The notes below the pieces were generated by a model that saw only the letters and a program-made list of their open reading frames with translations, did no database searches and was not told where the DNA came from. A program made the position numbers and the translations under genes. This document shows, one piece after another, positions 83 through 36,877 of a stretch of 64,000 bases of DNA (positions within the stretch are counted from its first letter, which is position 1; every line of letters starts with the position of its first letter). The DNA is from Hirundichthys speculiger (Eukaryota > Chordata > Actinopteri > Beloniformes > Exocoetidae): NCBI GenBank assembly GCA_018398805.1, contig JAGFBZ010000865.1:3658001-3722000 (forward strand). Reading direction: 5' to 3'.

Positions 83-640
83 GGCAAGGCAACTTTATTT
101 GTAGAGCACACTTCGTACACAAGGCAATTCAAAGTGCTTTACGGATGCATAAAGTCACAAGAAGGCAAATAGAATCATTCCATACAAGCATAAAAATAAT
201 CAATAATAAATAAAATTAATTAATAAAAAAATTAATTAATTAAATTAAAAATTAAGAGTGCAGATAAAATCCTTCCAGTCATCATCTTCACATCTAAACA
301 GAACTGTTTTCAGCCTGGATCTGAACATTGTCAGAGTTCAGGTCTGTCTCACATCTTCTAGAAGACTGGTCCAGATTTTAGGAGCATAAAACTGAAATGC
401 AGCTTCACCTTGTTTAGTCCTGACTCTGGACACCAGCAGGAGACCACTACCTGAGGTTCTCAGAGTCCAGGTTGGTTCATATGGATCTAACATGTTAGAG
501 ATGGACTTTGGGGCCATGAAGAGACTTGAACACAGGTAGAGCTGTTTTAAAGTCTATTCTCTGAGGGACAGGAATCCAGAGACCTCAGAACTGGACTAAT
601 ATGGTCATATTTCCTGGTTCTAGTCAGGACTCGTATTAAT
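83..640 (-). mobile_element. LINE 3' end, L2/CR1-like
   Basis: Read on the minus strand this is a frame-broken reverse-transcriptase C terminus (residues resembling MLDPYEPTWTLRTSGSGLL, then FYAPKIW) followed by a short 3' UTR that ends near the left edge with the motif GTGTACGAAGTGTGCTCTAC, AATAAA and GTTGCCTTG. The same 3' end, in the opposite orientation, forms the intron at 17109-17435, so both belong to one family. 5' truncation and stops show it is dead. The L2/CR1 assignment rests on the C-terminal RT signature and is less sure than the LINE call. Bases 1-82 show nothing I recognise. Confidence 0.65.
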
Positions 641-687
641 AAGAGTAATACAACTTGAAAAAGATCTGTATAAGGTGGATTTAGAAC

Positions 688-787
688 AGATAAAAATATG
701 CAATTAATTTGCGATTAATCATGATTAACTATTGACAGTCATGCGATTAATATGATTAATTATTTTGAGAAATTGACAGCCCTAATT
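688..787. mobile_element. terminal part of a miniature DNA element
   Basis: A cluster of ATTAAT/GATTAA palindromic motifs ends at GACAGCCCTAA. The reverse complement begins TTAGGGCTGTC, a terminal sequence I associate with fish non-autonomous DNA transposons. The partner end is not visible; the element seems truncated against the LINE. A related end is at 35728-35806. Confidence 0.4.
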
Positions 788-854
788 AAAACATTTCACA
801 TGAAATTCCACATCACACTTATTATCAATATAATGGACTATTAATTTATGTTAC

Positions 855-1227
855 CTGCAATTTTGTAAAACGCTTCTTTTATTTGAAGCGTGGGCAGATG
901 GCCAGGGAATACTACAAACATATTCAGCAGTTCAGTAAGAGCAAGTACAACCTTTATTCCAGTATTCTGGCTGAGATTTTCTGCATCACCAACTGAATGC
1001 ATGTAGGTTCCCGCAGCAAAGAAACGCAAAGAAACGCACACCGTTTGCGCTACTGTGAGCGCACGGCTGCGTTTGGTGGCGCTGCCAATATATGGCTCTA
1101 ACAGATTACAAATGTAACGTATTCCCTCAGCTGGAAATCCATAGCGTTCATAGAGAATATGGTCATGGGAAGCCAGCGGATCAGTCCAGTCTCTGTATAC
1201 TCTCCCTCCATTGCGCAATCCTGGCAC
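855..1227 (-). pseudogene. HARBI1-like (PIF/Harbinger) transposase, N-terminal exon
   Basis: This minus-strand open frame starts at ATG 1227 and matches the N-terminal part of PIF/Harbinger nucleases (HARBI1 family): RYGFPAEGI, then ALTVAQTVCVSLRFFAAGTY, HSVGDAENLS and FVVFPGHLPT. These enzymes are DDE nucleases that move Harbinger transposons. The frame runs into KIAG followed by a GTAA donor at 854-851, so the exon appears to end at 855. Compared with the family a few residues are missing around LSQNTGIKVV, and the catalytic exons with the DDE residues are absent downstream, where the MITE end and LINE lie. I read it as a truncated relic, not a host gene. Confidence 0.75.
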
Positions 1228-1570
1228 TCAGGTCAACGGGATTGGGTGAAAGTGAAAGGGTGGCGCTTGTTTATAGCCGATTTGAGCCTAAACTCTGCAC
1301 ATAACCTGCTCCAGACCAGGTTAAGCTTGCAGAGTAAATTACCATGGTGATCTAGCCAGGTTAAAAGAGAGCCACCTTTGTGGTACTGGAAATCCTGGCT
1401 TTAGACTCAACATACCTCACTAACCCTCTAATCTCGCTTCGTAGTACACCCCTCAGGTTGGTTGGTTGAATTCGTTTTTTTGGGCTGCTGTTGGTTGAAG
1501 AAGGAGAGAAAGGAAGGAGTGTCCATAGGCAGAGAAAAGAGGAAAATCAAGAGACTAGGGCTTAGAGTTG
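1228..1570. other. 5' flank of the Harbinger relic
   Basis: This holds probable leader sequence of the HARBI1-like exon (a palindromic CCTGCTCCAGACCAGGTT at 1308-1325 and several CAGGTT motifs), then purine-rich DNA. No terminal inverted repeat or gene is recognised. Confidence 0.35.
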
Positions 1571-2040
1571 GGATTTTAATGCTCAAATTCAAATTGATTT
1601 ATAAAGCCATTTTCATACAAGAGTAACACAAAGTGCTTTACATAATAAAAACAATCATTAAAATGACAACAATAAGAAAGAACAAGAAGACAACTTAAAA
1701 GCCATCACACACCCAAGGTTACAGCAAGAAAAAAAAACAAACAAAAAAACATCAACACCCAGTCATCCACTCTCTCTCATGCACACATACACATACTCAG
1801 TATTCATAGCCCCCCCCACCCCCTTTGGCCCCAATCTAAATAGACTCTTGAACATCCATCTTGGCACCAATGAACCAGGTGAGGAAAAACGATATCCTGG
1901 GGATCAGTTCCTGTCAAGACCATCCCCACGCACAATCACAGAGGTCATCGTCACAGGAACCACCCGGACCCAGGCTGACCAGGACCCACACCGCAAACAT
2001 CACCACGATATCTCTCAACATTCGTTGGGAGATACACCTC
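1571..2040 (-). mobile_element. LINE/SINE 3' UTR-like sequence
   Basis: On the minus strand the sequence runs GTAAAGCACTTTGTGTTACT to ATAAATCAATTTGAATT, the stem-plus-tail style common at fish retroposon 3' ends. Upstream of it lies a C-rich, CA-rich leader without a coherent frame. The plus-strand frame at 1779-2090 resembles nothing I know and is probably chance. Confidence 0.35.
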
Positions 2041-2399
2041 CCAACATGGATGGACTATGGCAGGAAAAGCTAGAGAGTTGGTTGACATGATGTAGAGGAG
2101 GAATGTGGATATTCTGTGTGTTCAGGAGACCAGCTGAAAACTAGTAAAGCTAGACGCTTAGGAGCAGGGTTCAAACTGTTTTCTCATGGTGTAGATGGAA
2201 AGAGAAGGAGTAGGAGTCATATTGAAGGAAGAGTTTGTTAGGAATGTTCTGGAGGTGAAAGGAGTGATGAGTCTGAAGCTAGAGATTGAAGGAACGATGT
2301 TTAATGGCATTAGTGGTTATGCCCCACAGGTATAATGTGAGTTAGAAGAGTAGGAGAAATTCTGGAATGAGGTGGATGAAGTGATGCAGAGTATCCCTA
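2041..2399 (+). pseudogene. RTE-type LINE, endonuclease domain (5' piece)
   Basis: Translation gives RELVDMM, VDILCVQET (the apurinic-type endonuclease motif with the metal-binding Glu), then GAGFKLFSHGVDG and, after frameshifts, further endonuclease sequence. This is the N-terminal nuclease of an RTE-clade LINE, which nicks target DNA to prime reverse transcription. It stops abruptly at 2399, where a Harbinger element is inserted, and resumes at 4383 within the same domain. Stops and frameshifts make it non-functional. There is no ORF1, as expected for RTE. Confidence 0.75.
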
Positions 2400-2514
2400 C
2401 GGCCCTATCTTACACCTCCTGCTACCCACTACCTGCAAATTGGAGCCTCTGCCAACCGCTAATGCAATCTTCTGTTCCCAAAAGCTGCTACCCATTATGC
2501 CGACTCCCTTACTC

Positions 2515-2795
2515 ACATTGTGGGCGCGGCAATGGACGTGTCTCTTGCGCTTTCCACAAATTCGGTATCTTGTTCTTTCTTATTCGGTAATCTGTATCTC
2601 GCAGATTTTGGATATCCGCAGATTTTGGATATTGGGTAGTGGGTGGTCAGACCACCCACTACCCAATATCCAAAATCTGCGAGATACAGGTACCGTAAGA
2701 TACCGAGTATGTGGAAAGCACAACTGGCATGTCGACGCGTAAAAGAGCACGTCCAAATCGCGACATTGTGCGTCCACCCAGTCACATGTGGACTG
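2515..2795. repeat. imperfect long palindrome within the Harbinger element
   Basis: Centred at about 2650 the arms GATATTGGGTAGTGGGTGG and CCACCCACTACCCAATATC pair perfectly and extend outward with interruptions (GCAGATTTTGG, TATCTC, CGGTA, GGAAAGC, GGACGTG). The left arm carries an extra copy of GCAGATTTTGGATAT. Each arm is roughly 120-140 bp with decay increasing outward. Confidence 0.85.
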
Positions 2796-3159
2796 CACAA
2801 CCGGCTCTAGCTCTCGATTATGCATCACTGTATTACTTGCATATGTTATTATTCTCTTAAGGGCAGATGATGTCTGTACAGCTGTGGCATGATCTCATTC
2901 AGATGTTTGCTGTGGAGGAAATGAGGAGATCACAGAACTCTGTTGTGGAGTTTCTTGTACTGTGCGCCTATCCCTCTGACCCTCTGGTGCTTGGAACACC
3001 TGAGATGCACTCAGTGGTAGAAGGTAGATGTCATCATACGTGTTCCTCTGGCTCAATGCTCATCCAATGATCCGTTCTGCAGTATTTTTAAAAGCACCGC
3101 TCCCAGCGACTATGCGTCTTGGCGCAGCTGTGCCTCTTGGTGCGTCTTGGCACAGGGGA

Positions 3160-3910
3160 TATGTTAGATAACTCAAAAAGTTAAGGATGGATTTTGATGA
3201 CATTTTCAGGAGTTGTCAGAAATGTGAAAAGGAAGAACTGATTTTATTTTGGGTGTGATCCGGAAGAAATCCTGGATTCTGGATCACTTTCAAATTTTCG
3301 ATAACATTGCGCTGTTTAGTTGTTTCTTGAACCCTAAAGCAACCACAATGGAGACAGGAAGGGAGTTCTGGAATTTTAAGAGTTTAATTCTCTGATGTAA
3401 AAAAGGAGGATTCGAGGGTTGGCAGCCAAACCAACAATCCAGGGGACGACGAAGGCAAGGAGGTGGCACTGCGAATGGCTGGATCAGGCGTTTCTCTGGG
3501 AAGATCTGGCGACGCGTCTGGTTGAATGATGACTGAATAGGTACAGGTGTGCAGTGCCACACCTGGGATGCTCGTTGGATGTGAAGGTGAAACATAGGTG
3601 TCAATGTAGAGGATTGAAGGTGGGGCAGTGGGTTGTGCGCAGGAGCCCCAGAGGTGGAAGGTTGCAGTTCACAACCCAGCTTGAGACCATAACATGCGCT
3701 CAATGGGGCCGGAAATTTTGTTTCTCAACATCTCCGTTAATTATTGCCCACAACTCATTAAATTTCACTCAGGTATTGACAATGAAAACCTCTATAAAAT
3801 TTCAGAGATTGATCTGGATCTGATCCAGAACGCGGATCTGTAAATCGCTGTATGGGAGAACTGTTGTGCTTGGCGGAGGTCTGCGCTCTCTGAGTGCTTT
3901 CCTAGTTAAG
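3160..3910 (-). repeat. dispersed teleost repeat, second copy at 55540-56065
   Basis: It runs from AACTCAAAAAGTTAAGGATG to CTTGGCGGAGGTCTGCGCTC with GAGTGCTTTCCTAGTT. The reverse complement matches 55540-56065 segment by segment (ATCCAGAATCCAGGATTTC; AATTAACGGAGAT; GAGGTTCCATTG-like). Class unknown: no coding frame and no clear terminal repeats. It is interrupted by the insert at 3314-3695. Confidence 0.7.
3314..3695. mobile_element. 382-bp insertion of unknown class
   Basis: Alignment to the sister repeat at 55540-56065 shows extra sequence only here. It is flanked by GCGCT on both sides (3309-3313 and 3696-3700), a likely 5-bp target duplication. It is GC-richer than its surroundings. I do not recognise a family; the minus-strand frame 3290-3703 spans it and shows no known motif. 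Confidence 0.5.
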
Positions 3911-6944: not shown

Positions 6945-7481
6945 TTGTAATATCCCTTTGCAGCTAGAACAGCTTCAACTCTTCTGGGAATGCTGTCCAC
7001 AAGGTTTTATGAGTATGTTTATTGGAATTTGTGACCAGAAGTCACAAAGAAGTGCATTTGTGAGGTCACACATTGATGTTGACTGAGAAGGCCTGGCTCT
7101 CAGTCTCTGCTCTAATTCATCCCAAAGGTCTTCTATCAGGTTAATGTCAGGACTCTGTGCAGACCAGTCAAGTTCATCCACACCAGACTCTGCCATCCAT
7201 GTCTTTATGGACCTTGCTTTGTGCACTGGTGCACAGTCATGTTGGAAGAGGAAGGGGCCAGCTCCAAACTGTTCCCACAAAGTTGGGAGCATGGAATTGT
7301 CCAAAATGTCTTGGTCTGCTGAAGCATTCAGAGTTTCTTTCACTGGAACTAAGGGGCCAAGCCCAGCTCCTGAAAAACAACCCCACACTATAATCCCCCC
7401 TCCACCAAACTTTACACTTGGCACAATGCAGTCAGACCAGTACCGTTCTCCTGGCGACCGCCAAACCCAGACTCTTCTATC
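6945..7481 (-). pseudogene. Tc1-like transposase, C-terminal piece
   Basis: The minus strand encodes [33 protein letters not shown] (second catalytic Asp), [15 protein letters not shown] (catalytic Glu in the IE dipeptide) and, after a frameshift at about 7000, [15 protein letters not shown]. This is the DDE catalytic domain of a Tc1/mariner transposase, which cuts and pastes at TA sites. The piece ends at 7481, where a hAT element is inserted; it continues at 9921. The frame is remarkably well preserved apart from one frameshift. Confidence 0.9.
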
Positions 7482-7800
7482 CAGGCCCGTCGATAGGGGG
7501 GGACAAACGGGTCTGCTGTCCCGGGCCCAGGGAGAGGGGGGCCCACAACTGGGCCCTCATTAAATTGTGGAATTTAAAAAAAAATGTCAGAATAGTCCTA
7601 TTTGTGGAAAACTATTATTTCAATCAGTTTAATAAGTAATAAGTCAATAAGTTTTTTTATTTGTATTCTTCTAGTTGTCCTTGAGAAATATTGATCATGA
7701 ACCCTCCCACCCCACACAAAAATGGTTTGGCCTAGATCACACTCAGGGCCGTCGCGTGAAGGCAGGCAAACCAGGCAATTGCCTAGGGCCCCGAGCTGTC

Positions 7801-16315: not shown

Positions 16316-16439
16316 ATAATAATTGAATCCTAACAATAGTCAGATTTTATTTTTAAACATGAATCAAAGATATTGATTTTAAATGTAGATATGCATTAAA
16401 AAGTAGTATGGGTGTGGCTTTGGAACTCAAACCTCAACG

Positions 16440-16452
16440 GAACATTCTAGAA
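16440..16452 (+). promoter_or_regulatory. heat-shock element (three-unit consensus)
   Basis: GAACATTCTAGAA reads GAA-nn-TTC-nn-GAA, the exact three-unit binding site for heat-shock factor trimers. It lies about 60 bp upstream of the TATA box of the coiled-coil gene. A CACCC-type GGGTGTGGC is at about 16408. Function is inferred. Confidence 0.55.
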
Positions 16453-16461
16453 AATGATGTA

Positions 16462-16503
16462 ACAGGACATCATTATGATGTCACAGGACATCATTATGAT
16501 GTC
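16462..16503. promoter_or_regulatory. tandem palindromes upstream of TATA
   Basis: ACAGGACATCATTATGATGTC occurs twice in direct tandem (16462-16482, 16483-16503). Each contains the perfect palindrome GACATCATTATGATGTC (centres 21 bp apart, about two helical turns). The 3' flank makes TGATGTCA, a CRE-like site. They end 10 bp before the TATA box. Confidence 0.7.
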
Positions 16504-16512
16504 ATCGGGGGG

Positions 16513-16520
16513 TTATAAAG
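16513..16520 (+). promoter_or_regulatory. TATA box
   Basis: TTATAAAG, about 150 bp before the start codon, predicting transcription start near 16543. The predicted 5' UTR contains ACGGATCACTG twice. Confidence 0.6.
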
Positions 16521-16667
16521 CACCAGAGCCAAACATTCCATCATTTCAGTTAGATCGCTCCAAACGTTCATACGTGACGGATCACTGCTTGCAAGACAGG
16601 CAAACGGATCACTGAAAGCATTGACGGATTGACATCTATCGTTCAGATAAAGACAAAAGAACTGGAA

Positions 16668-17108
16668 ATGGCTTCTCAAACATGGAGGTTCCCTGACGGG
16701 AGGTACGTTGGTCAGGCGAGGAGAGCGGGAAACCATGAAAACCAGATGGGCCACCGCGGGCTTGTTGAAGAAATCAACAGGCTGACTTACCTGCTGAACG
16801 TGGAAACGGGTAAATTCATGGACGCCAACTCCAAAGTATTTCAACTGTCGAAAGATTTGGATGAAACACGACTCCAGTTGAAAAATGCGAAACAAGGGAC
16901 CGAAACACTTCAGGGACAAATTAAGTCTCACGTGGACAAGACGGTGCATATCATGGCTAACCTGAAAGCTGACCTGGACTCTCTCAACCATAAGAGGGAG
17001 CAGGAAAGGGCCTCCCTGCAACAAGCCAACGACTCATTTCAAGAGCTCAGCTGTAAATATGAAGCTGATATTACAGCACAAAGAAAGGAGATGGAAACAC
17101 TTCAGCAG
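16668..17108 (+). CDS. coiled-coil repeat protein, exon 1 (residues 1-147)
   Basis: I place the start at ATG 16668 (GGAAATGGC; upstream in-frame codons lack another ATG). The product begins MASQTWRFPDGRYVGQARRA and from about residue 28 is a heptad-patterned coiled coil (EEINRLTYLLNVE, LSKDLDETRLQLKNA, LKADLDSLNHKREQERASL). No transmembrane segment or signal peptide is seen. The exon ends METLQQ|GTAAAG, phase 0. Splicing to 17436 gives a 511-residue protein; without splicing translation stops at 17168. Exon 1 residues ~95-147 are similar to ~165-230 in exon 2, so the coiled coil grew by internal duplication. I do not recognise a named family; it looks like a fish lineage-specific cytoskeletal or scaffold-like protein. 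Confidence 0.75.
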
Positions 17109-17435
17109 GTAAAGTTGCATTTCAGTTTTATGCTCCTAAAATCTGGAACAGTCTTCCAGAAGATGTGAGACAGGTCTCAAGTCTGACAATGTTCAGATCC
17201 AGGCTGAAAACAGTTCTGTTTAGATGTGCATATAACAACTGAAAGGATTTTATCTGCATTCTTTATTTTTAATTTAAATGATAATTTTTTTAATTAATTT
17301 TTAATTTAATTTAATTAATCAATGATTATTTTCATGCTTGTGTGATTCTATTTGCCTTCTTGTGATTTTATGCATCTGTAAAGCACTTTGAATTGCCTTG
17401 TGTACGAATTGTGCTCTCTGCCTTGTCTTCACCAG
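17109..17435 (+). mobile_element. intron made of a LINE 3' end
   Basis: The whole intron is the 3' end of the LINE family at 83-408 (reverse orientation). Donor GTAAAGTTGCATTTCAG aligns with the LINE's GTGAAGCTGCATTTCAG. Within it the LINE RT C terminus is still open (AFQFYAPKIWNSLPEDVRQ through LKTVLFRCAYNN, stop 17240-17242), followed by the 3' UTR to TGCCTTG (17425). CTTCAGCAGG (17100-17109) and CTTCACCAGG (17427-17436) flank it as a target duplication with one mismatch. The acceptor AG (17434-17435) sits in the second copy. Removal restores the uninterrupted coding sequence. Confidence 0.8.
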
Positions 17436-18530
17436 GAGCTCAAAACTGAAGTTAAGGCTCATGAAGAAACAGGGATGAAAAACCAGCAGCTCATCAACAA
17501 TCTGAGAGCTGAGCTGGACTCTCTCCGCCAGCAGACGGAGCAGGAGAAGGCCTCCCTGCAACAAATTTCCAAAGAAATGGAAATTCGTTTGCAGTTGGAG
17601 CTGGAACACCTGAAAGACTCGAGCCAAGAGCTCAGGTGCAGATGTGAGGCTGATGTTCAAGCAGCACGAGACGAGGCAGAAAGACTTCAATGGGAACTGA
17701 AAGAACTGAAGGTGCACGTTGAAGACCTGAAGCTCAAAAACCAGAGAGCTGAGAAGGACTTGGAGGATCTGAAAACTGACCCCAAACAGCTTATCTGCCC
17801 CGACGATCACGGCAGAGATGACTTTGGTCTCGCAATTGTCACGTGTGATGGACTGAGCCAACAGGTGGCGAGCCAACCAGAGGAGACCCCCGTGGTCCCC
17901 TCTGGTCCTGAAACCCCTGTGGTCCCCTCTGGTCCTGAGACCCCTGTGGTCCCGTCTGGTCCTGAGACCCCTGTGGTCTCCTCTGGTCCTGAGACCCCTG
18001 TGGTCCCCTCTGGTCCTGAGACCCCTGCGGTCCCCTCTGGTCCTGAGACCCCTGTGGTCCCCTCTGGTCCTGAAACCCCTGTGGTCCCCTCTGGTCCTGA
18101 GACCCCTGTGGTCCCCTCTGGTCCTGAGACCCCTGTGGTCTCCTCTGGTCCTGAGACCCCTGTGGTCCCCTCTGGTCCTGAGACCCCTGTGGTCCCCTCT
18201 GGTCCTGAGACCCCTGTGGTCCCCTCTGTGGTCCCCTCTGGTCCTGAGACCCCTGTGGTCCCCTCTGGTTCTGAGACCACAGAGTTGGTCCAGTCGTCTG
18301 AGGAAGGAAAGGATCCTGATACTGAGCCCATATCGGTGGCTCATGCCTCAGAGGAAATCTTCCCAGAGACAATAGAGGAGCTTGACCCTGAGCCCCAAAT
18401 GTTGGACCAGCCTTCTGAACAAACTGTCCCAGAAACAGGGAAAAAGAAAAAATCAGTTTTTCAAAGAATGAGGAGCTTTCTGAGCTTGAAGAAATCAAAA
18501 AAATCAAAAAGACAGAAGCCCACAACTTAA
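17436..18530 (+). CDS. coiled-coil repeat protein, exon 2 (residues 148-511)
   Basis: The exon begins ELKTEVKAHEETG in the same phase and continues the coiled coil (LRAELDSLRQQTEQEKASLQ, ELRCRCEADVQAARDEAERL, LKVHVEDLKLKNQRAEKDLE) to about residue 275. Residues ~297-428 are the PETPVVPSG repeat, probably disordered. An acidic stretch follows (EEIFPETIEELDPEPQ), then a lysine/arginine-rich end (KKKKSVFQRMRSFLSLKKS) that could bind nucleic acid, membrane or tubulin. The stop is TAA 18528-18530. Reading frame, codon periodicity and promoter/poly(A) context support a real gene; function is unknown. Confidence 0.75.
   Translation, partial: ELKTEVKAHEETGMKNQQLINNLRAELDSLRQQTEQEKASLQQISKEMEIRLQLELEHLKDSSQELRCRCEADVQAARDEAERLQWELKELKVHVEDLKLKNQRAEKDLEDLKTDPKQLICPDDHGRDDFGLAIVTCDGLSQQVASQPEETPVVPSGPETPVVPSGPETPVVPSGPETPVVSSGPETPVVPSGPETPAVPSGPETPVVPSGPETPVVPSGPETPVVPSGPETPVVSSGPETPVVPSGPETPVVPSGPETPVVPSVVPSGPETPVVPSGSETTELVQSSEEGKDPDTEPISVAHASEEIFPETIEELDPEPQMLDQPSEQTVPETGKKKKSVFQRMRSFLSLKKSKKSKRQKPTT
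17883..18278 (+). repeat. 27-bp coding minisatellite (PETPVVPSG)n
   Basis: About 14 tandem copies of a 27-bp unit encode P-E-T-P-V-V-P-S-G with rare V/A or P/S changes and one partial 12-bp duplication (VVPSVVPSG). The near identity implies recent homogenisation. Because 27 is divisible by three, changes in copy number keep the frame. The array creates long open frames on the other strand that I regard as artefacts. Confidence 0.95.
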
Positions 18531-19305
18531 ATCCCCTCGCCCTTCCTTTTGATTATCCATTTGAGGAGCTCTGACTTTATTTCTTTATTTCTTTATTTCT
18601 GACTTTATTTATTTATTGGTTTTGATTTTGACTGTAAATAACTTTGTTGACTATGAGCTGTTCTTTATTGTTTGCAGAGTCTCAGTGGCCTGGTGTTCTC
18701 ACATTAGAGATGTCCAGACTATTGAGTGTATCTCTGTTGAAAGCGCATGTCATCTTTCTTGCTTTGATCACAGTTACTTGATTTTTATTGTTAATATTGA
18801 ATTTAAGGTCATTTAAGTCCTGTTTCAGTTTGTTGGTGCTTTATTGATTTATTAGCTGACTACTGATTCAGGAATGAGCGGATTTTTGCTCATACTTGTT
18901 AATAACCATTCTTATTTGCCGTTGCTTTATTGATTGATTGTTTGAGTTACATTTATTAATGACCATCAATTTAAAGATTTTGATTGTATTTATACTTTTA
19001 ATTCCTGATTTTATTTCTTGTTATTTTATTGATTTATTCGTCAATTTACAACTGATTCAGGAATTTTCTGACTTTTCATCATATGTATACTTGTTATTTC
19101 CTGATTTATTTAATGTTGCTTTATTTACTTAATAGTTATTATTCCTTACATTTATTAATAACCATTGATTTATGAATTTCGGCTGTTTGTATGCCTTTAA
19201 TTTCTGAATTTATTGATATATTTGCTGTTTTAGTTTTATTTGCTGATTGCCTGTTATTGATTAAATGCATATTTGTTTGAAATAAACTTTCACTTCTCTT
19301 GACCC
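18531..19305 (+). other. predicted 3' UTR with AU-rich elements
   Basis: After the stop lies ~750 bp of T-rich sequence to AATAAA at 19281-19286. It contains TTATTTATTTATT (about 18605) and many ATTTA motifs, the signature of unstable mRNAs. CTGATTCAGGAAT recurs at about 18862 and 19043, showing a diverged ~180-bp duplication. Confidence 0.55.
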
Positions 19306-19915
19306 TTTAGTAAAGACTCATTGATGTATTTAATTTGCAATTCTTTGCATTTTAAAATACCTGCTGCCTCGCTTTGCCTTTATAATTATACAGTAATTGA
19401 TTTTTAAAGGCTGTGCACTGGCACAGCTCTATTATCAAATAAGTACATATACTAGTTATCAGTAGGGTCATAATGACAGTAATATCATGGAAATGAGAAA
19501 ATGTGTATAATGTTTGCTATAACATTTGCTGTCGTTTGCTATTCTGAGTCAGAATCATCATTCCTTGATCTGCCATCTAATAAAACACATTAAAACGTGG
19601 AGATGTGGAAACTCTGCATCTCTATGAATCTAAACTTTACTATCAGACACACACAGAAATAGATGTTTCTAAACTGTTAGTAAACATTTCTGGTTTCAAC
19701 TTTCATTTCACACATGAAGCAAAAGTAAACAAAAATGTGACTTGTAATTTTTAAGTGGATGTATTGCAAACTCTATGGATGTCTTAGTATGGGAATTCTC
19801 CTGATAGGGCAGATTTTAGCATAGACGAGGGCTGTGCGAGTTCATAAGATGGACAACTACCAGCTATGTGTCATGATGTCACCAACCCACTCCATGTAAA
19901 AGGGCAAAAATTCAT
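19306..19915. other. no recognised feature
   Basis: AT-rich intergenic sequence. I see no gene, hairpin or known repeat. Confidence 0.5.
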
Positions 19916-20575
19916 CTAATGTTAATACATTTACAGAAGCTTTGACAATTTTAAAGTTTTCAACAGCACACCAAGGGAAGGATTATCAGTCTCTACTTCA
20001 TGGAGTTGTTTTTTTTGTTAAGTTGGATGATGTTTGCTCTAAAGTGTCAGTTATTACTTGTGGTGTTCCCCAGGGGTCCGTGCTGGGCCCTTAACTATTG
20101 ATTTTCCATGTTAATGACATAGACAGTGTCTCTAAATGTATGGAAACATTCTATGGTTTTATTTTTATTTGCAGATGATTCAAGCATCTGTTGTTCTGGT
20201 GATGATGTGAGCTACTTGTTTGAGATCAATACTACAATAATACTCAGACTAAAAATATGGTTTAATATGAACAAATTATCATAAAACTTAAGTAAAATGA
20301 AAACAATGTCATTTGGAAACTGTACAACTCATTACTTCTAAAGTAAATATCAAAATAGATGGAGTTAACATAGAAAGAGTCAATAGGAATAAACGTCTTG
20401 ATGTTATAAGATACAAAAAAACTGAGCTGGAAATTATACATGTACAACACATACAGAACAAACTGTCCAGATCCACTGCAGTTTTAAATAAAGCAAAATA
20501 TATTCTTTGTCCAAGGTCACTGCATATTATATACGACTGTCTTGTGTTACCATATGTGAAGGGAACTATAATTTA
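19916..20575 (+). pseudogene. LINE reverse transcriptase remnant
   Basis: The plus strand encodes SVITCGVPQGSVLGP (RT motif B region), an FADDSSICCSGDD segment with the catalytic FADD (20168-20179), and VNIKIDGVNIERVNRNKRL, HIQNKLSRSTAVLNKAKYIL and LVLPYV. Frameshifts and stops separate these blocks. It is a non-LTR retrotransposon of the jockey/Rex-like superfamily, lacking endonuclease and N-terminal parts. Confidence 0.75.
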
Positions 20576-21032
20576 AGGGGAACACAGAGGTTTAAACTGA
20601 GCAGGCTGAGAACAGACTTTAGAGCTCAGTCTGGCTCATATGTTGTTGGATTTATTGAACTGTCATCATAGAAAATGTGAGCAATTTCTCAAAGTTTTGT
20701 TTATCCTAGCTTGATTTCATGACCGTCAACATAAGCTGAAATTTGACCAGTAAGAAAACACAAGACAGCAGAATCTCATCTTCAAGGAGGTTTGTTCCTG
20801 ATCATCCTCAAGTACTTTCTGGTTTATTTGATTCTTTTTTTGTTCACCTGTAGAAAGCTCTTAGAACAGCTTACCCTACCTTTATCAAGACAATGTGGAA
20901 ATATGATGCATTATAACATATAAAGTTTGTATGTGTACGTGGTCCAGCTCTACACATGACCCCAACTTTCAACTCTTATTCTTCATGACTATCATTCTCA
21001 CCTATTTCACCTCAAAGGCTAAACGTGCAAGA
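20576..21032. other. possible LINE tail, otherwise unrecognised
   Basis: The first ~150 bp may continue the LINE; the rest is AT-rich with no recognised feature. Confidence 0.35.
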
Positions 21033-21329
21033 TTAACCTTTGTGTCATGTTCGTTTCTCCCCCCTTACTTTAGTGCTTCCGGTCAAATTTGACAAGCCTG
21101 TTTTAACTGCTCCTACATTAACAGAAAAACCACTGATTAACACCAAATTTTATTTAACTCCTTTTTAAGCTGTAAACAATGTCTCAGACCACTGGTTTAT
21201 ATGAATAACTGCAGTGAATATACATAAAATAGACACAGAAATAGTAAACTGTATTCCAAAATTATCATTTATTGTAAAAAGAAAGTAACAAAAATCAAAA
21301 CAGTGACCAAATTCACACATCAACATAAG

Positions 21330-21494
21330 CCTATCATTTGTATGTGTGTATTTGTGTGTGTGGGTGTGTGGGGGGGCTGTGTCTTCACACACAGGAGTGG
21401 CATCCTAACAATATTTTCTACTCTTGCTCTTCCTCCTCTTTCCTGGGTGGATGAATACCAGAGCAAATTGCCATCCTTGGACTGCAATATCATG
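21330..21494 (+). repeat. direct repeat flanking the hairpin array, copy 1 (copy 2 at 22239-22414)
   Basis: CTATCATTTGTATGTGTGT, a GT-rich stretch, TCTTCACACACAGGAG, GGCATCCTAACAATATTTTC and TTTCCTGGGTGGATGAATAC through CCATCCTTGGACT.GAATATC recur at 22239-22414. The array lies between the two copies. A third, inverted fragment of the same segment is at about 22186-22238. Confidence 0.9.
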
Positions 21495-22190
21495 GGACAA
21501 CTCCCACCGCTACACCAGGCTGTGGGCTTGAACGTGAATGTTCAGTACCGGACAGCTCCCACTACTACTACCGAACATTCACGTTCAGCACCGGACAGCT
21601 CCCACCACTTCTCCAGGCTGTGGGAGCTGTCCAGTGCTGAACGTTCATATTCAGCACTGGACAGCTCCCACAGCCCGGAGTACTGGTGGGAGCTGTCCGG
21701 TGCTGAATGTGAACATTCAGCACTGGACAGCTCCCACCACTTCAGCACCGGACAGCTCCCACCATTTCTTCAGGCTGTGGGACCTGTCCAGGGCTGAACG
21801 TTCATATTCAGCACTGGACAGCTCCCACAGCCCGGAGTAATGGTGGGAGCTGTCCAGTGCTGAACGTTCATATTCAGCACTGGACAGCTCCCACCACTTC
21901 TCCAGGTTGTGGGAGCTGTCCAGTGCTGAACGTTCATATTCAGCACTGGACAGCTCCCACAGCCCGGAGTAATGGTGGGAGCTGTCCAGTGCTGAACGTT
22001 CATATTCAGCACCGGACAGCTCCTGCCACTTCTCCAGGCTGTGAGAGCTGTCCGGTGCTGAAGTGGTGGGAGCTGAACATTCAGCACCGGACAGCTCCCA
22101 CAGCCTGGAGAAGTGGTGGGGGCTGTTCGTTGCTGAACATTCATGTTCGAGCCCACAGCCCAGTGTAGCGGTGGGAGCTGTCTCGTGATA
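21490..22190. repeat. array of ~65-bp alternating inverted repeats
   Basis: I count 11 copies of GGACAGCTCCCAC (or close variants) and 10 of its complement GTGGGAGCTGTCC, mostly alternating. Each pair encloses a 14-nt loop that is alternately CACTTCTCCAGGCT or AGCCCGGAGTAATG, themselves near reverse complements. The junctions between hairpins are the palindrome GTGCTGAACGTTCA.ATTCAGCAC. The period is ~65-66 bp from 21593 to 22013. Confidence 0.95.
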
Positions 22191-22325
22191 TTCCAGTCCA
22201 AGGATGGCAATTTGCTCTGGTATTTATCCACCCAGGAGCCTATCATTTGTATGTGTGTGTGTGTGTGTGTGGGGCTGGGGGGGTGGGGGTGGGGGCATGT
22301 GTCTTCACACACAGGAGCGGCATCC

Positions 22326-22617
22326 TAACAATATTTTCTCTTCTAGCTCTGCCTCCTCTTTCCTGGGTGGATGAATACCAGAGCAAATTGCCATCCTTGG
22401 ACTGGAATATCACAGGTGCCTCTTCCACAGGTGTGTCTTCCTCTGGAGCCTCTTCCTCGCCATCTGTTGACTGGTCAGTCTCACAATGGTCTGGATCAAA
22501 ATCAGAATCAATGTTGTCTTCTATTTCTGAGACATCCTCCTTTATTTCTGGTTGAACTTTAATCCCCTGTTCATCAGGTTGAAATAAAAGGTCCAGAGCT
22601 TCTCTGACAAGAAATCA
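22326..22617 (-). pseudogene. piggyBac transposase N-terminal fragment
   Basis: The minus strand encodes REALDLLFQPDEQGIKVQPE, an acidic stretch (EDVSEIEDNIDSD, TDGEEEAPEEDTPVEEAP), then SKDGNLLWYSSTQERGGRAR and ENIVRM. Acidic N-terminal sequence before a WxSTQ-like motif is typical of piggyBac/PGBD4-type transposases. It then runs directly into non-coding repeat, so the DDD catalytic domain is deleted. An AT-rich TATATA at about 22681-22689 lies upstream on this strand. Confidence 0.65.
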
Positions 22618-35849: not shown

Positions 35850-36396
35850 TTTTGTTATAACAAGTGGGACACAATTGTGAAGTGGAATGCAATTTATTGG
35901 ATATCTTAAACTTTTTTAACAAATAAAAAACTGAAAAGTGGGGCGTGCAATATAATTTGGCCCCTTTACTTTCTGTGCAGCAAACTCACTCCAGAAGTTC
36001 AGTGAGGATCTCTGAATGATCCAATGTTGTCGTGAATGACTGATGATGATCAATAGAATCCACCTGTGTGTAATCAAGTCTCCGTATAAATGCACCTGCT
36101 CTGTGATAGTCTCAGGGTTCTGGTTTAAAGCACAGAGAGCATCATGGAAGACCAAAGAACCCACCAGGCAGGTCCCAGATACTGTTGTGGAGAAGTTTAA
36201 AGCTGGATGTGGATACAAAAAGATTTCCCAAGCTTTAAATATTTCAAGGAGCACTGTGCAAGCAATTATATTGAAATGGAAGGAGTATCAGACCACTGCA
36301 AATCTACCAAGACCCAGCCGTCCCTCTAAACTTTCATCTCAAACAAGGAGAAGACTGATCAGAGATGCAGCCAAGAGGCCCATGATCACTCTGGAT
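35848..36396 (+). pseudogene. Tc1-like element, 5' half with transposase DNA-binding domain
   Basis: It starts with sub-terminal Tc1 sequence (AACAAGTGGGACACAATTGT, TTTATTGGATATCTTAAAC) without the outermost repeat. The frame then gives DTVVEKFKAGCGYKKISQAL, NISRSTVQAIILKWKEYQTT, LPRPSRPSKLSSQTRRRLIR and DAAKRPMITLD, the bipartite helix-turn-helix that binds the transposon ends. The usual ATG near 36144 is one base out of frame (an extra G). At 36397 a hAT terminus cuts the element off; the DDE catalytic domain is missing. Confidence 0.9.
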
Positions 36397-36520
36397 CAGG
36401 GGTGTCAAACTCAATTACACAGGGGGCCAAAATTCAAAACATGCTTCAGGTCGTGGGCCAAACAGGTTAATCTGATCTATATATTGATACTCTATATTGT
36501 ATATTGGTATCATTACTGTC
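36397..36520 (+). mobile_element. hAT-type terminus inserted in Tc1
   Basis: CAGGGGTGTCAAACTCAA and GTGGGCCAAACAGGTTAATC are the start of a common fish hAT-type non-autonomous element. Its other end is not found, so it is truncated. Confidence 0.6.
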
Positions 36521-36877
36521 TAACCATATGAGGGTGAATCCAGGTAGATCCACGATGGAGTTGATTTAACCAGGTTTTAGTAAAACACGTAAGGCTGGAC
36601 TCACTGTACACTTTCTGACTCTTCACCGGTATCTCCAGTTTACCACTCTGGTTGGTCAGGGAGTTGATATTTCCCATGAGGCCAAAGGCAGAAATGGCTT
36701 CTATCTCCATTTCCTGGCTTTCACCTTTGCACCAGTGCCACAACCACGAAAACTCCACTTGATCTCAGCTGGAATAGGATGATGTACACCAGATTTTCTC
36801 CGTTTCAATGAAAGAAGCTCCTCTTGAATAACCGCTTCTCTCCACAGTAATATTCACAGGATTATCCATCAGTAGTA

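What the first reader, a model, noticed from the sequence alone, without database searches (positions are those of the whole stretch)
17100..17436. A LINE insertion that appears to have become a precise intron
Seen: the only intron of the coiled-coil gene is, end to end, the 3' end of the LINE family also present at 83-408. CTTCAGCAGG before and CTTCACCAGG after it form a target duplication with one mismatch. The donor GT is at the first LINE base and the acceptor AG lies in the second duplicate, so splicing removes LINE plus one duplicate and restores the old frame exactly (METLQQ|ELKTE, phase 0) in mid coiled coil. The LINE RT tail inside still has an open frame, so the event is recent. Known: introner-like elements create introns by supplying one splice site and borrowing the other from the duplication. 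Inference: a LINE fragment has done the same here in a vertebrate.
Basis: partly seen in the sequence, partly recalled or inferred. Interest (0 to 1): 0.88.

Follow-up and report, generated by a model that had tools for sequence, protein, structure and literature searches.

The report
Fish gene intron born from LINE
A fragment of a jumping gene (a LINE retrotransposon) that landed inside the protein-coding part of a fish gene seems to have turned into a removable intron, and the gene then multiplied with that intron in place, which gives a rare chance to watch an intron being born in a vertebrate.

Summary
Window 17109-17435 is the 3' end of a LINE, 5'-truncated at GGTGAAGCTGC, flanked by CTTCAGCAGG/CTTCACCAGG. 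It is not a single-locus event: the 1.04-Gb genome (jawed vertebrate by RAG1) has at least 40 places matching this coiled-coil gene. Of 35 copies read, 24 carry the LINE at the same base and 11 lack it. In 10 of the 24 the two 10-bp duplicates are identical. All 24 keep GT and AG. The introns form one clade against five ordinary LINE copies: one insertion. Spliced, six of 24 copies read full-length (411-584 aa) instead of stopping at 166-277 aa. Exon 2 of ten open copies evolves under purifying selection in the spliced frame only (dN/dS 0.42 against 1.46 and 1.23); the last 28 intron bases vary four times less than the intron body. Caveats: no RNA was available; exon 1 shows no frame-specific signal; the 11 intronless genes show a sister-repeat site, so they are not proven pre-insertion alleles; the window copy has lost a branch-point-like stretch. 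Transposon-made introns are known, as are Alu-made 3'UTR introns in primates; I found no LINE-made precise coding intron in a vertebrate in eight searches of an open-licence library.

The parts
16316..19373 (+). Gene unit shared with the dispersed paralogues (5' flank, both exons, intron, 3' UTR, about 90 bp past the poly(A) signal); homology runs further in some copies
   Evidence: blastn of paralogous loci against the window
16514..16519 (+). TATAAA, likely promoter TATA box of the gene
   Evidence: read by eye; no promoter scan was run
16668..17108 (+). Exon 1 coding part, ATG to CAG, 147 codons, coiled coil
   Evidence: translation
17100..17109 (+). Left target-site duplicate CTTCAGCAGG; its CAG ends exon 1, its last G opens the donor
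   Evidence: the nine exonic bases read CTTCACCAG in 10 of 24 copies
17109..17435 (+). LINE-derived intron, GTAAAG...CACCAG, phase 0
17107..17417 (+). 5'-truncated LINE 3' end in sense orientation (end of its open frame, then 3' UTR)
   Evidence: 86% to window 103-410; introns are 93-95% identical on average to genomic LINE copies L046-L049
17418..17426 (+). LINE tail CTGCCTTGT, likely polypyrimidine tract; a 10-bp deletion lies just before it in this copy only of 24
   Evidence: alignment of 24 copies and with LINE copies
17427..17436 (+). Right target-site duplicate CTTCACCAGG; gives the acceptor AG (17434-17435)
   Evidence: CTTCACCAG in 23 of 24 copies
17436..18530 (+). Exon 2 coding part, GAGCTC to stop, ending KKSKKSKRQKPTT; holds 27-bp coding repeats (about 17883-18278)
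   Evidence: translation; selection in spliced frame
19281..19286 (+). AATAAA, likely poly(A) signal
   Evidence: read by eye
83..410 (-). Ordinary copy of the same LINE family; the element continues 5' beyond the truncation point of the intron

Best explanation
A LINE RNA was reverse-transcribed into a coding exon of a coiled-coil gene at a CTTCACCAGG-like site. The copy stopped early (5' truncation) at GGTGAAG, where the target's CAGG and the LINE's AAGG overlap, so the left junction reads CAG|GTGAAG, a good donor. At the right end the LINE's pyrimidine-rich CTTGCCTTG tail runs into the duplicated CTTCACCAG, which makes a polypyrimidine tract followed by the acceptor AG. Splicing removes the LINE plus one duplicate and gives back the old coding sequence, so the insertion was tolerated. 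The donor later became GTAAAG (22 of 24 copies; GTAAAT in L024; L028 keeps GTGAAG), and the gene with its intron multiplied to at least 24 copies. Shown: LINE identity, truncation, duplicates, single origin, GT/AG in 24 of 24, open spliced frames in six, selection on exon 2. Inferred: splicing in cells, target-primed reverse transcription, the order of events.
For: LINE match from the donor to the right duplicate in 23 of 24 copies and to nine bases short of it in the window copy. Four fetched LINE copies and the window's own copy run on 5' of the truncation point. Both duplicates identical in 10 of 24 copies. 24 introns one clade against 5 LINE copies, 96/96. Intron lengths 311-346, all three residues mod 3, yet the spliced frame reaches the family C-terminus in 6 of 24 copies (L010 507, L013 462, L019 411, L021 525, L037 584, window 511 aa), while unspliced reading stops at 166-277 aa in those six. 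Exon 2, ten open gap-free copies of 24: dN/dS 0.42 (0.26-0.67) in frame, 1.46 and 1.23 out of frame. Five full copies, exon 1 plus start of exon 2: 0.48 (0.31-0.73) in frame, 0.95 and 0.86 out of frame. Last 28 intron bases: diversity 0.012 against 0.050 in the body; 6 of 306 windows as low. Eleven paralogues align gap-free across the splice junction, 74-80 of 90 bases.
Against: No RNA evidence. 18 of 24 LINE-bearing copies do not give a spliced frame to the family C-terminus (two of them, L014 and L027, miss only the last residues), so many are pseudogenes. Exon 1 of nine open copies shows no frame-specific constraint (0.63 in frame, 0.58 and 0.69 out of frame). With 13 copies, two bearing stops, exon 2 gives 0.50 (0.29-0.92); in the six full copies alone exon 2 gives 0.59 (0.36-1.11) and the C-terminus 0.64 (0.31-1.49). 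For the last 15 intron bases, 13 of 319 windows vary as little. The 16 LINE-free sites seen (11 genes, 5 second repeats) are sister-repeat sites or look like them, so a LINE-free version of the very same repeat was not seen (the direct search did not complete). L037 carries the intron inside the intronless clade, so exchange between copies is likely. The window copy lost ten bases, 19-28 before the acceptor in its kin, with the ACTAAAC-like stretch.
Confidence: 0.86

Rival explanations
1. The LINE broke the gene. LINE-bearing copies are pseudogenes or make a truncated protein (166 aa in the window copy); the GT and AG are accidental.
For: 18 of 24 copies lack a spliced frame to the family C-terminus; no RNA; the window copy has lost the likely branch-point stretch; exon 1 shows no frame-specific constraint.
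Against: Exon 2, downstream of the LINE, is under in-frame purifying selection in ten open copies; six copies are full-length only when spliced; GT/AG in 24 of 24; the end of the intron is unusually conserved.
Confidence: 0.1
2. The gene had an older intron there and the LINE landed in it and took it over.
For: Splice sites look normal; CAG|G is expected at many intron edges and could account for 4 of the 10 duplicate bases.
Against: I see no sequence but LINE between the duplicates in the 24 copies; the duplicates are identical over 10 bases in 10 copies; the second repeat in 5 copies and the site in 11 paralogues are uninterrupted at the matching codon.
Confidence: 0.03
3. Exon 2 is translated from its own start as a separate gene, which would explain its constraint without splicing.
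For: In-frame ATG codons exist in exon 2; exon 2 shows clearer constraint than exon 1.
Against: The single-exon paralogues L039 (564 aa) and L041 (492 aa) read through both parts. I read a TATAAA before exon 1 by eye and did not scan for promoters before exon 2.
Confidence: 0.03
4. The intronless genes are later products: they lost the LINE-bearing repeat by unequal exchange between tandem repeats. (Bears on polarity only, not on the LINE origin of the intron.)
For: Their site is second-repeat-like at 4-5 of 5 left positions in ten genes (2 of 5 in L045) and 5 of 6 right positions in all eleven; L037, inside their clade, has both repeats and the intron.
Against: The grouping with second repeats is weak (65/59) and the markers are not clean: L037's LINE-bearing first repeat is itself second-repeat-like at 3 of 5 and 5 of 6. 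L037's intron may have come by exchange.
Confidence: 0.45

Closest known systems
Intron gain by transposon insertion (35 unambiguous events in Oryza, Drosophila, Oikopleura, Zea; table in Yenerall & Zhou 2012, PMC3443670; passages read)
   Same: Element intronized as a whole, target duplication supplies splice-site letters, coding sequence restored
   Different: That table lists no vertebrate for this mechanism; here the element is a LINE and the gene later multiplied
Alu-driven intronization in primate 3' UTRs (Sela et al. 2007, PMC2394776; passages read)
   Same: Retroelement insertion into a vertebrate exon creates an intron
   Different: Four cases, all in 3' UTRs, alternatively retained; here the coding sequence, the whole insertion, frame restored
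SINE intron in rice catalase A (as told in PMC2394776 passages; original not read)
   Same: Retroelement gives an intron in coding sequence
   Different: Plant SINE; here a vertebrate LINE
Introners (Gozashti et al. 2022, PMC9860276; passages read)
   Same: In some families one splice site is carried and the other borrowed from the target duplication
   Different: Introners make many introns and most families are consistent with DNA transposition; [quoted passage not shown] Here one insertion was copied by gene duplication
Novel introns in fish serpins and melanocortin receptors (PMC2746811, PMC3151243; passages read)
   Same: Intron gain in ray-finned fishes
   Different: No similarity to known repeats in the serpin introns; repeats were found in some medaka and stickleback receptor introns, but in the passages I saw they are not shown to be the origin of the intron

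Membership tests
Intron gained by transposon insertion | Element sequence fills the intron from splice site to splice site | tested here: met
   24 copies read; LINE match ends at the right duplicate in 23, nine bases short of it in the window copy, where those bases are still tail-like
Intron gained by transposon insertion | Target-site duplication at the two ends | tested here: met
   Identical in 10 of 24; 1-3 differences in the other 14, of which one change (L020) is in the right duplicate
Intron gained by transposon insertion | Relatives without the element and without the intron | tested here: inconclusive
   11 intronless paralogues and 5 second repeats are uninterrupted, but the genes look second-repeat-like; the search for the first repeat without LINE did not complete; no other species could be searched
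Intron gained by transposon insertion | Spliced transcripts | not testable with these tools
   No RNA data; indirect support from selection, open frames and conserved intron end
Introner | Same element forms introns at many different gene sites | tested here: inconclusive
   Of 40 scored hits (2086 candidates) 22 are this one gene family; 18 are LINE-only and were not checked for lying in introns; the 24 introns are one insertion
LINE (non-LTR retrotransposon) insertion | 5' truncation with a common 3' end and target duplications | tested here: met
   Five other copies run on 5' and share the 3' end; duplicates at this site, not examined at the other copies
LINE (non-LTR retrotransposon) insertion | Assignment to the L2/CR1 group by its reverse transcriptase | not tested
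   Recalled from the look of the open-frame end and tail; no full copy or reverse transcriptase was analysed
Intron gain by tandem duplication of AGGT | Intron is a copy of neighbouring exon | tested here: not met
   Intron is LINE, not exon

The most novel reading that the evidence does not exclude
The 3' end of this LINE family is a ready-made half-intron (pyrimidine-rich tail, branch-like A-rich stretch, GTGAAG inside), so sense insertions truncated at that point next to CAGG become introns at once. The genome would then hold further coding introns made this way: a retroposon-type introner in a vertebrate, with this gene family as the case caught in progress.
Probability: 0.12. Interest if true: 0.93.

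Novelty: new variant of a known kind. Interest (0 to 1): 0.74.

Why it matters
Where introns come from is an old question, and for vertebrates the papers I saw call the sources of new coding introns largely unknown. Here source, site, splice-site origin and later evolution can all be read in one genome, with dozens of parallel copies, so the steps from insertion to fixed intron can be tested directly: does GTGAAG splice, does GTAAAG splice better, is the LINE tail enough as an acceptor?

Tried and rejected
A second intron in exon 1 of L034-L037 was suspected from a block of about 324 bp; it is extra in-frame coding sequence without meaningful LINE similarity. I first read the 11 intronless genes as plain pre-insertion alleles. 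Repeat-by-repeat comparison showed their site to be second-repeat-like (redone with a proper alignment because three rows with indels, L009, L025 and L045, had been misaligned), so I withdrew that. Exact excision restoring frame was dropped as evidence, since any target-duplicating insertion gives it. Pfam gave nothing over a cut-off and the protein search gave no relative at E 0.001 among 3735 candidates (residues 1-250; which organisms that collection covers is not stated, so this says little). Rfam found nothing in the window at gathering scores. I looked for ends of the duplicated unit to see whether it is itself a transposon; flanks differ in a complex way and I found no clear ends. The query lies in the 3' region of the gene, not the 5' region I had meant, because that locus is stored in the other orientation; it is used only to count copies. 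A paper search with a two-letter term was rejected and repeated with another term.

Literature searches behind 'not found in print': (open-licence PubMed Central only; subscription papers mostly missing). Papers were seen as listings and passages, none read whole.

Full report
WHAT IS THERE. The window is G000:C865:3658001-3722000, in a genome of 1.04 Gb and 3002 contigs. RAG1 (PF12940) is present in three pieces on contig C80, best piece 1142 bits, 0 of 14 control genomes, so this is most likely a jawed vertebrate; interrupted RAG1 and Tc1-like and LINE repeats point to a teleost (recalled, not tested). At 16668-18530 lies a gene for a 511-aa coiled-coil protein with a 27-bp coding repeat, with no Pfam domain over cut-off and no relative in the protein search. 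Its reading frame is interrupted once, by 17109-17435. Joined at 17108/17436 the frame is open; one base off on either side it is not. Unspliced, it stops inside the insert after 166 residues.

THE INSERT IS A LINE 3' END. It matches the LINE copy at window 83-410 (minus strand) at 86%. The introns match three of four further LINE copies fetched from the genome at 94-95% on average, the fourth at 93%, and the window LINE at 89%. All five ordinary copies continue upstream of the point where the insert begins (ACAAGGTGAAGCTGCATTTCAG); the insert begins at AGG|T(A/G)AA. On the right the LINE tail CTTGCCTTG runs into CTTCACCAGG. Assignment to the L2/CR1 group is from memory.

IT IS A FAMILY, AND ONE INSERTION. 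Searching the genome with the insert plus its exon edges gave 40 scored hits out of 2086 candidates; 22 (the window among them) hold exon edges too, 18 are LINE only. A search with an uninterrupted repeat of the gene gave 16 contiguous matches (40 of 62 candidates scored; the query itself is one of the 16); 11 are at loci with no LINE and 5 are second repeats in LINE-bearing copies. Four more loci (C1036, C55, C606, C989) gave split matches and probably carry the intron, but were not read. A third search, with the 3' region of the gene, scored 40 of 50 candidates, all 40 matching. I hold 35 copies in sequence: 24 with the LINE, 11 without. The 24 introns form one clade against 5 LINE copies (96/96). 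Introns are 95.1% identical to each other on average.

TARGET DUPLICATION. The nine bases before the donor read CTTCACCAG in 10 copies, CTTCAGCAG in 6 (window included), CTTCGCCAG in 3, CTTCGGCAG in 2, CTTTACCAG in 2 and CTTTGGCAG in 1. The nine bases that end the intron read CTTCACCAG in 23 of 24 and CTCCACCAG in one (L020). The copy that serves as acceptor has stayed put while the coding copy has changed, which fits use as a splice site, though changes shared by descent are not independent.

DONOR AND ACCEPTOR. L028 keeps GTGAAGCTGC, the LINE letters; the other 23 begin GTAAA, 22 of them GTAAAG. The left junction is thus target CAGG overlapping LINE AAGG, followed by LINE. The right end is LINE pyrimidines plus duplicate. 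In 21 of 24 copies ACAACTAAAC lies 19-28 bases before the acceptor (LINE, L009 and L025: ACAAATAAAC), a possible branch point. The window copy lacks these ten bases; of five copies scanned, its nearest relaxed branch-like match is 45 bases out, against 21 in L010, L028 and L037 and 55 in L009. It may splice less well than its kin.

IS IT SPLICED? No RNA is held. Indirect evidence for: (a) GT and AG in 24 of 24, with lengths 311-346 in all three residues mod 3. (b) Six of 24 copies give a spliced frame to the family's C-terminus, 411-584 aa; unspliced these stop at 166-277 aa. Two others (L014, L027) miss only the last residues; the remaining 16 break earlier, and of the 11 intronless copies three are full or nearly full length (L036, L039, L041). 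(c) Exon 2 of ten open, gap-free copies: dN/dS 0.42 (bootstrap 0.26-0.67) in frame, 1.46 and 1.23 in the other frames; variable columns by codon position 16, 18, 33. With 13 copies, two holding stops, 0.50 (0.29-0.92). Five full copies over exon 1 and the start of exon 2: 0.48 (0.31-0.73) in frame, 0.95 and 0.86 in the others. Six full copies over exons 1 and 2 without the 27-bp repeats: 0.51 (0.38-0.69); three intronless genes: 0.30 (0.16-0.50). (d) Diversity of the last 28 intron bases is 0.012 against 0.050 in the body, 6 of 306 windows as low; for the last 15 bases 13 of 319. Against: exon 1 alone shows no frame-specific signal (0.63 against 0.58 and 0.69, nine copies); in the six full copies exon 2 alone (0.59, 0.36-1.11) and the C-terminus (0.64, 0.31-1.49) do not exclude 1; copies probably exchange sequence, and choosing open copies favours low ratios a little.

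THE INTRONLESS COPIES. All 11 align gap-free across the splice junction, 74-80 of 90 bases equal to the spliced window sequence. Ten of 11 share at least 580 bp upstream of the start codon with L036, which in turn matches LINE-bearing genes over that stretch and the 3' region, so they do not look like retrocopies; L044 is cut at its contig end. They form a clade at 100/100 that also holds L037, which has the intron (34 of 35 copies in that tree, L015 left out for too little sequence; 33 of 35 in the other, L015 and L044 left out; each tree needs two changes of intron state). But the site they show looks like that of a sister tandem repeat: in L014, L022, L024, L033 and L037 the LINE sits in the first of two repeats and the second is uninterrupted. 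The intronless genes are second-repeat-like at 4-5 of 5 left diagnostic positions (L045: 2 of 5) and 5 of 6 right ones, though L037's own first repeat scores 3 of 5 and 5 of 6, so the markers are not clean. In the aligned tree they fall with the second repeats, weakly (65/59), and the second repeat of L037 lies among them strongly (100/99). So they show what the coding sequence looks like uninterrupted, but they could have lost the first repeat with its LINE. That LINEs insert and are not precisely removed (general knowledge) gives the direction of change regardless.

COMPARISON. A 2012 table of intron gains lists transposon insertion in rice, Drosophila, Oikopleura and maize, none in vertebrates (PMC3443670, passages). 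Primate Alu insertions made four alternative 3'UTR introns (PMC2394776, passages). The large introner survey found them in two animal groups and finds no evidence for a pattern of gain in vertebrates (PMC9860276, passages). Fish serpin introns showed no similarity to known repeats (PMC2746811, passages). The human intron-gain survey of 2025 says its methods were not designed to find gains by transposable elements (PMC12124190, passages). In eight searches I saw no LINE-made precise coding intron in a vertebrate; papers outside the open library were not searched.

VERDICT. Origin of the intron from a LINE: near certain. Splicing: likely. Kind: known mechanism (transposon insertion), new, as far as I could search, in element class, host and completeness of the record.

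Noticed in passing
window 16316-19373 and L009-L045: The coiled-coil gene is a dispersed family of at least 40 places in the genome. Units run over 5 kb with subgroup-specific flanks (L015/L018/L021/L023; L012/L025; L010/L014/L022), and how they spread is not explained.
   Followed up: partly
L037 in gene orientation, about 359-3260: Mosaic copy: intronless-clade gene that carries the LINE intron and both repeats, with an intron nearly as short as that of L033 (311 and 312 bp); looks like exchange between subfamilies, though the two introns are not sisters in the intron tree.
   Followed up: partly
window 17883-18278: 27-bp coding minisatellite (GPETPVVPS) whose copy number seems to differ between paralogues.
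   Followed up: no
L034-L037 in exon 1: In-frame coding block of about 108 codons absent from window-type copies.
   Followed up: partly
window 6975-7556 (-) and 36040-36531 (+): Open frames that look like Tc1-type transposase pieces (motif recalled, not tested).
   Followed up: no
window 21228-22555: Long minisatellite-like tract with open frames on both strands (not run through a repeat finder).
   Followed up: no
window about 20301-20576: Open frame that looks like a piece of another LINE's reverse transcriptase (recalled), at the 3' edge of the shared unit in several copies.
   Followed up: no
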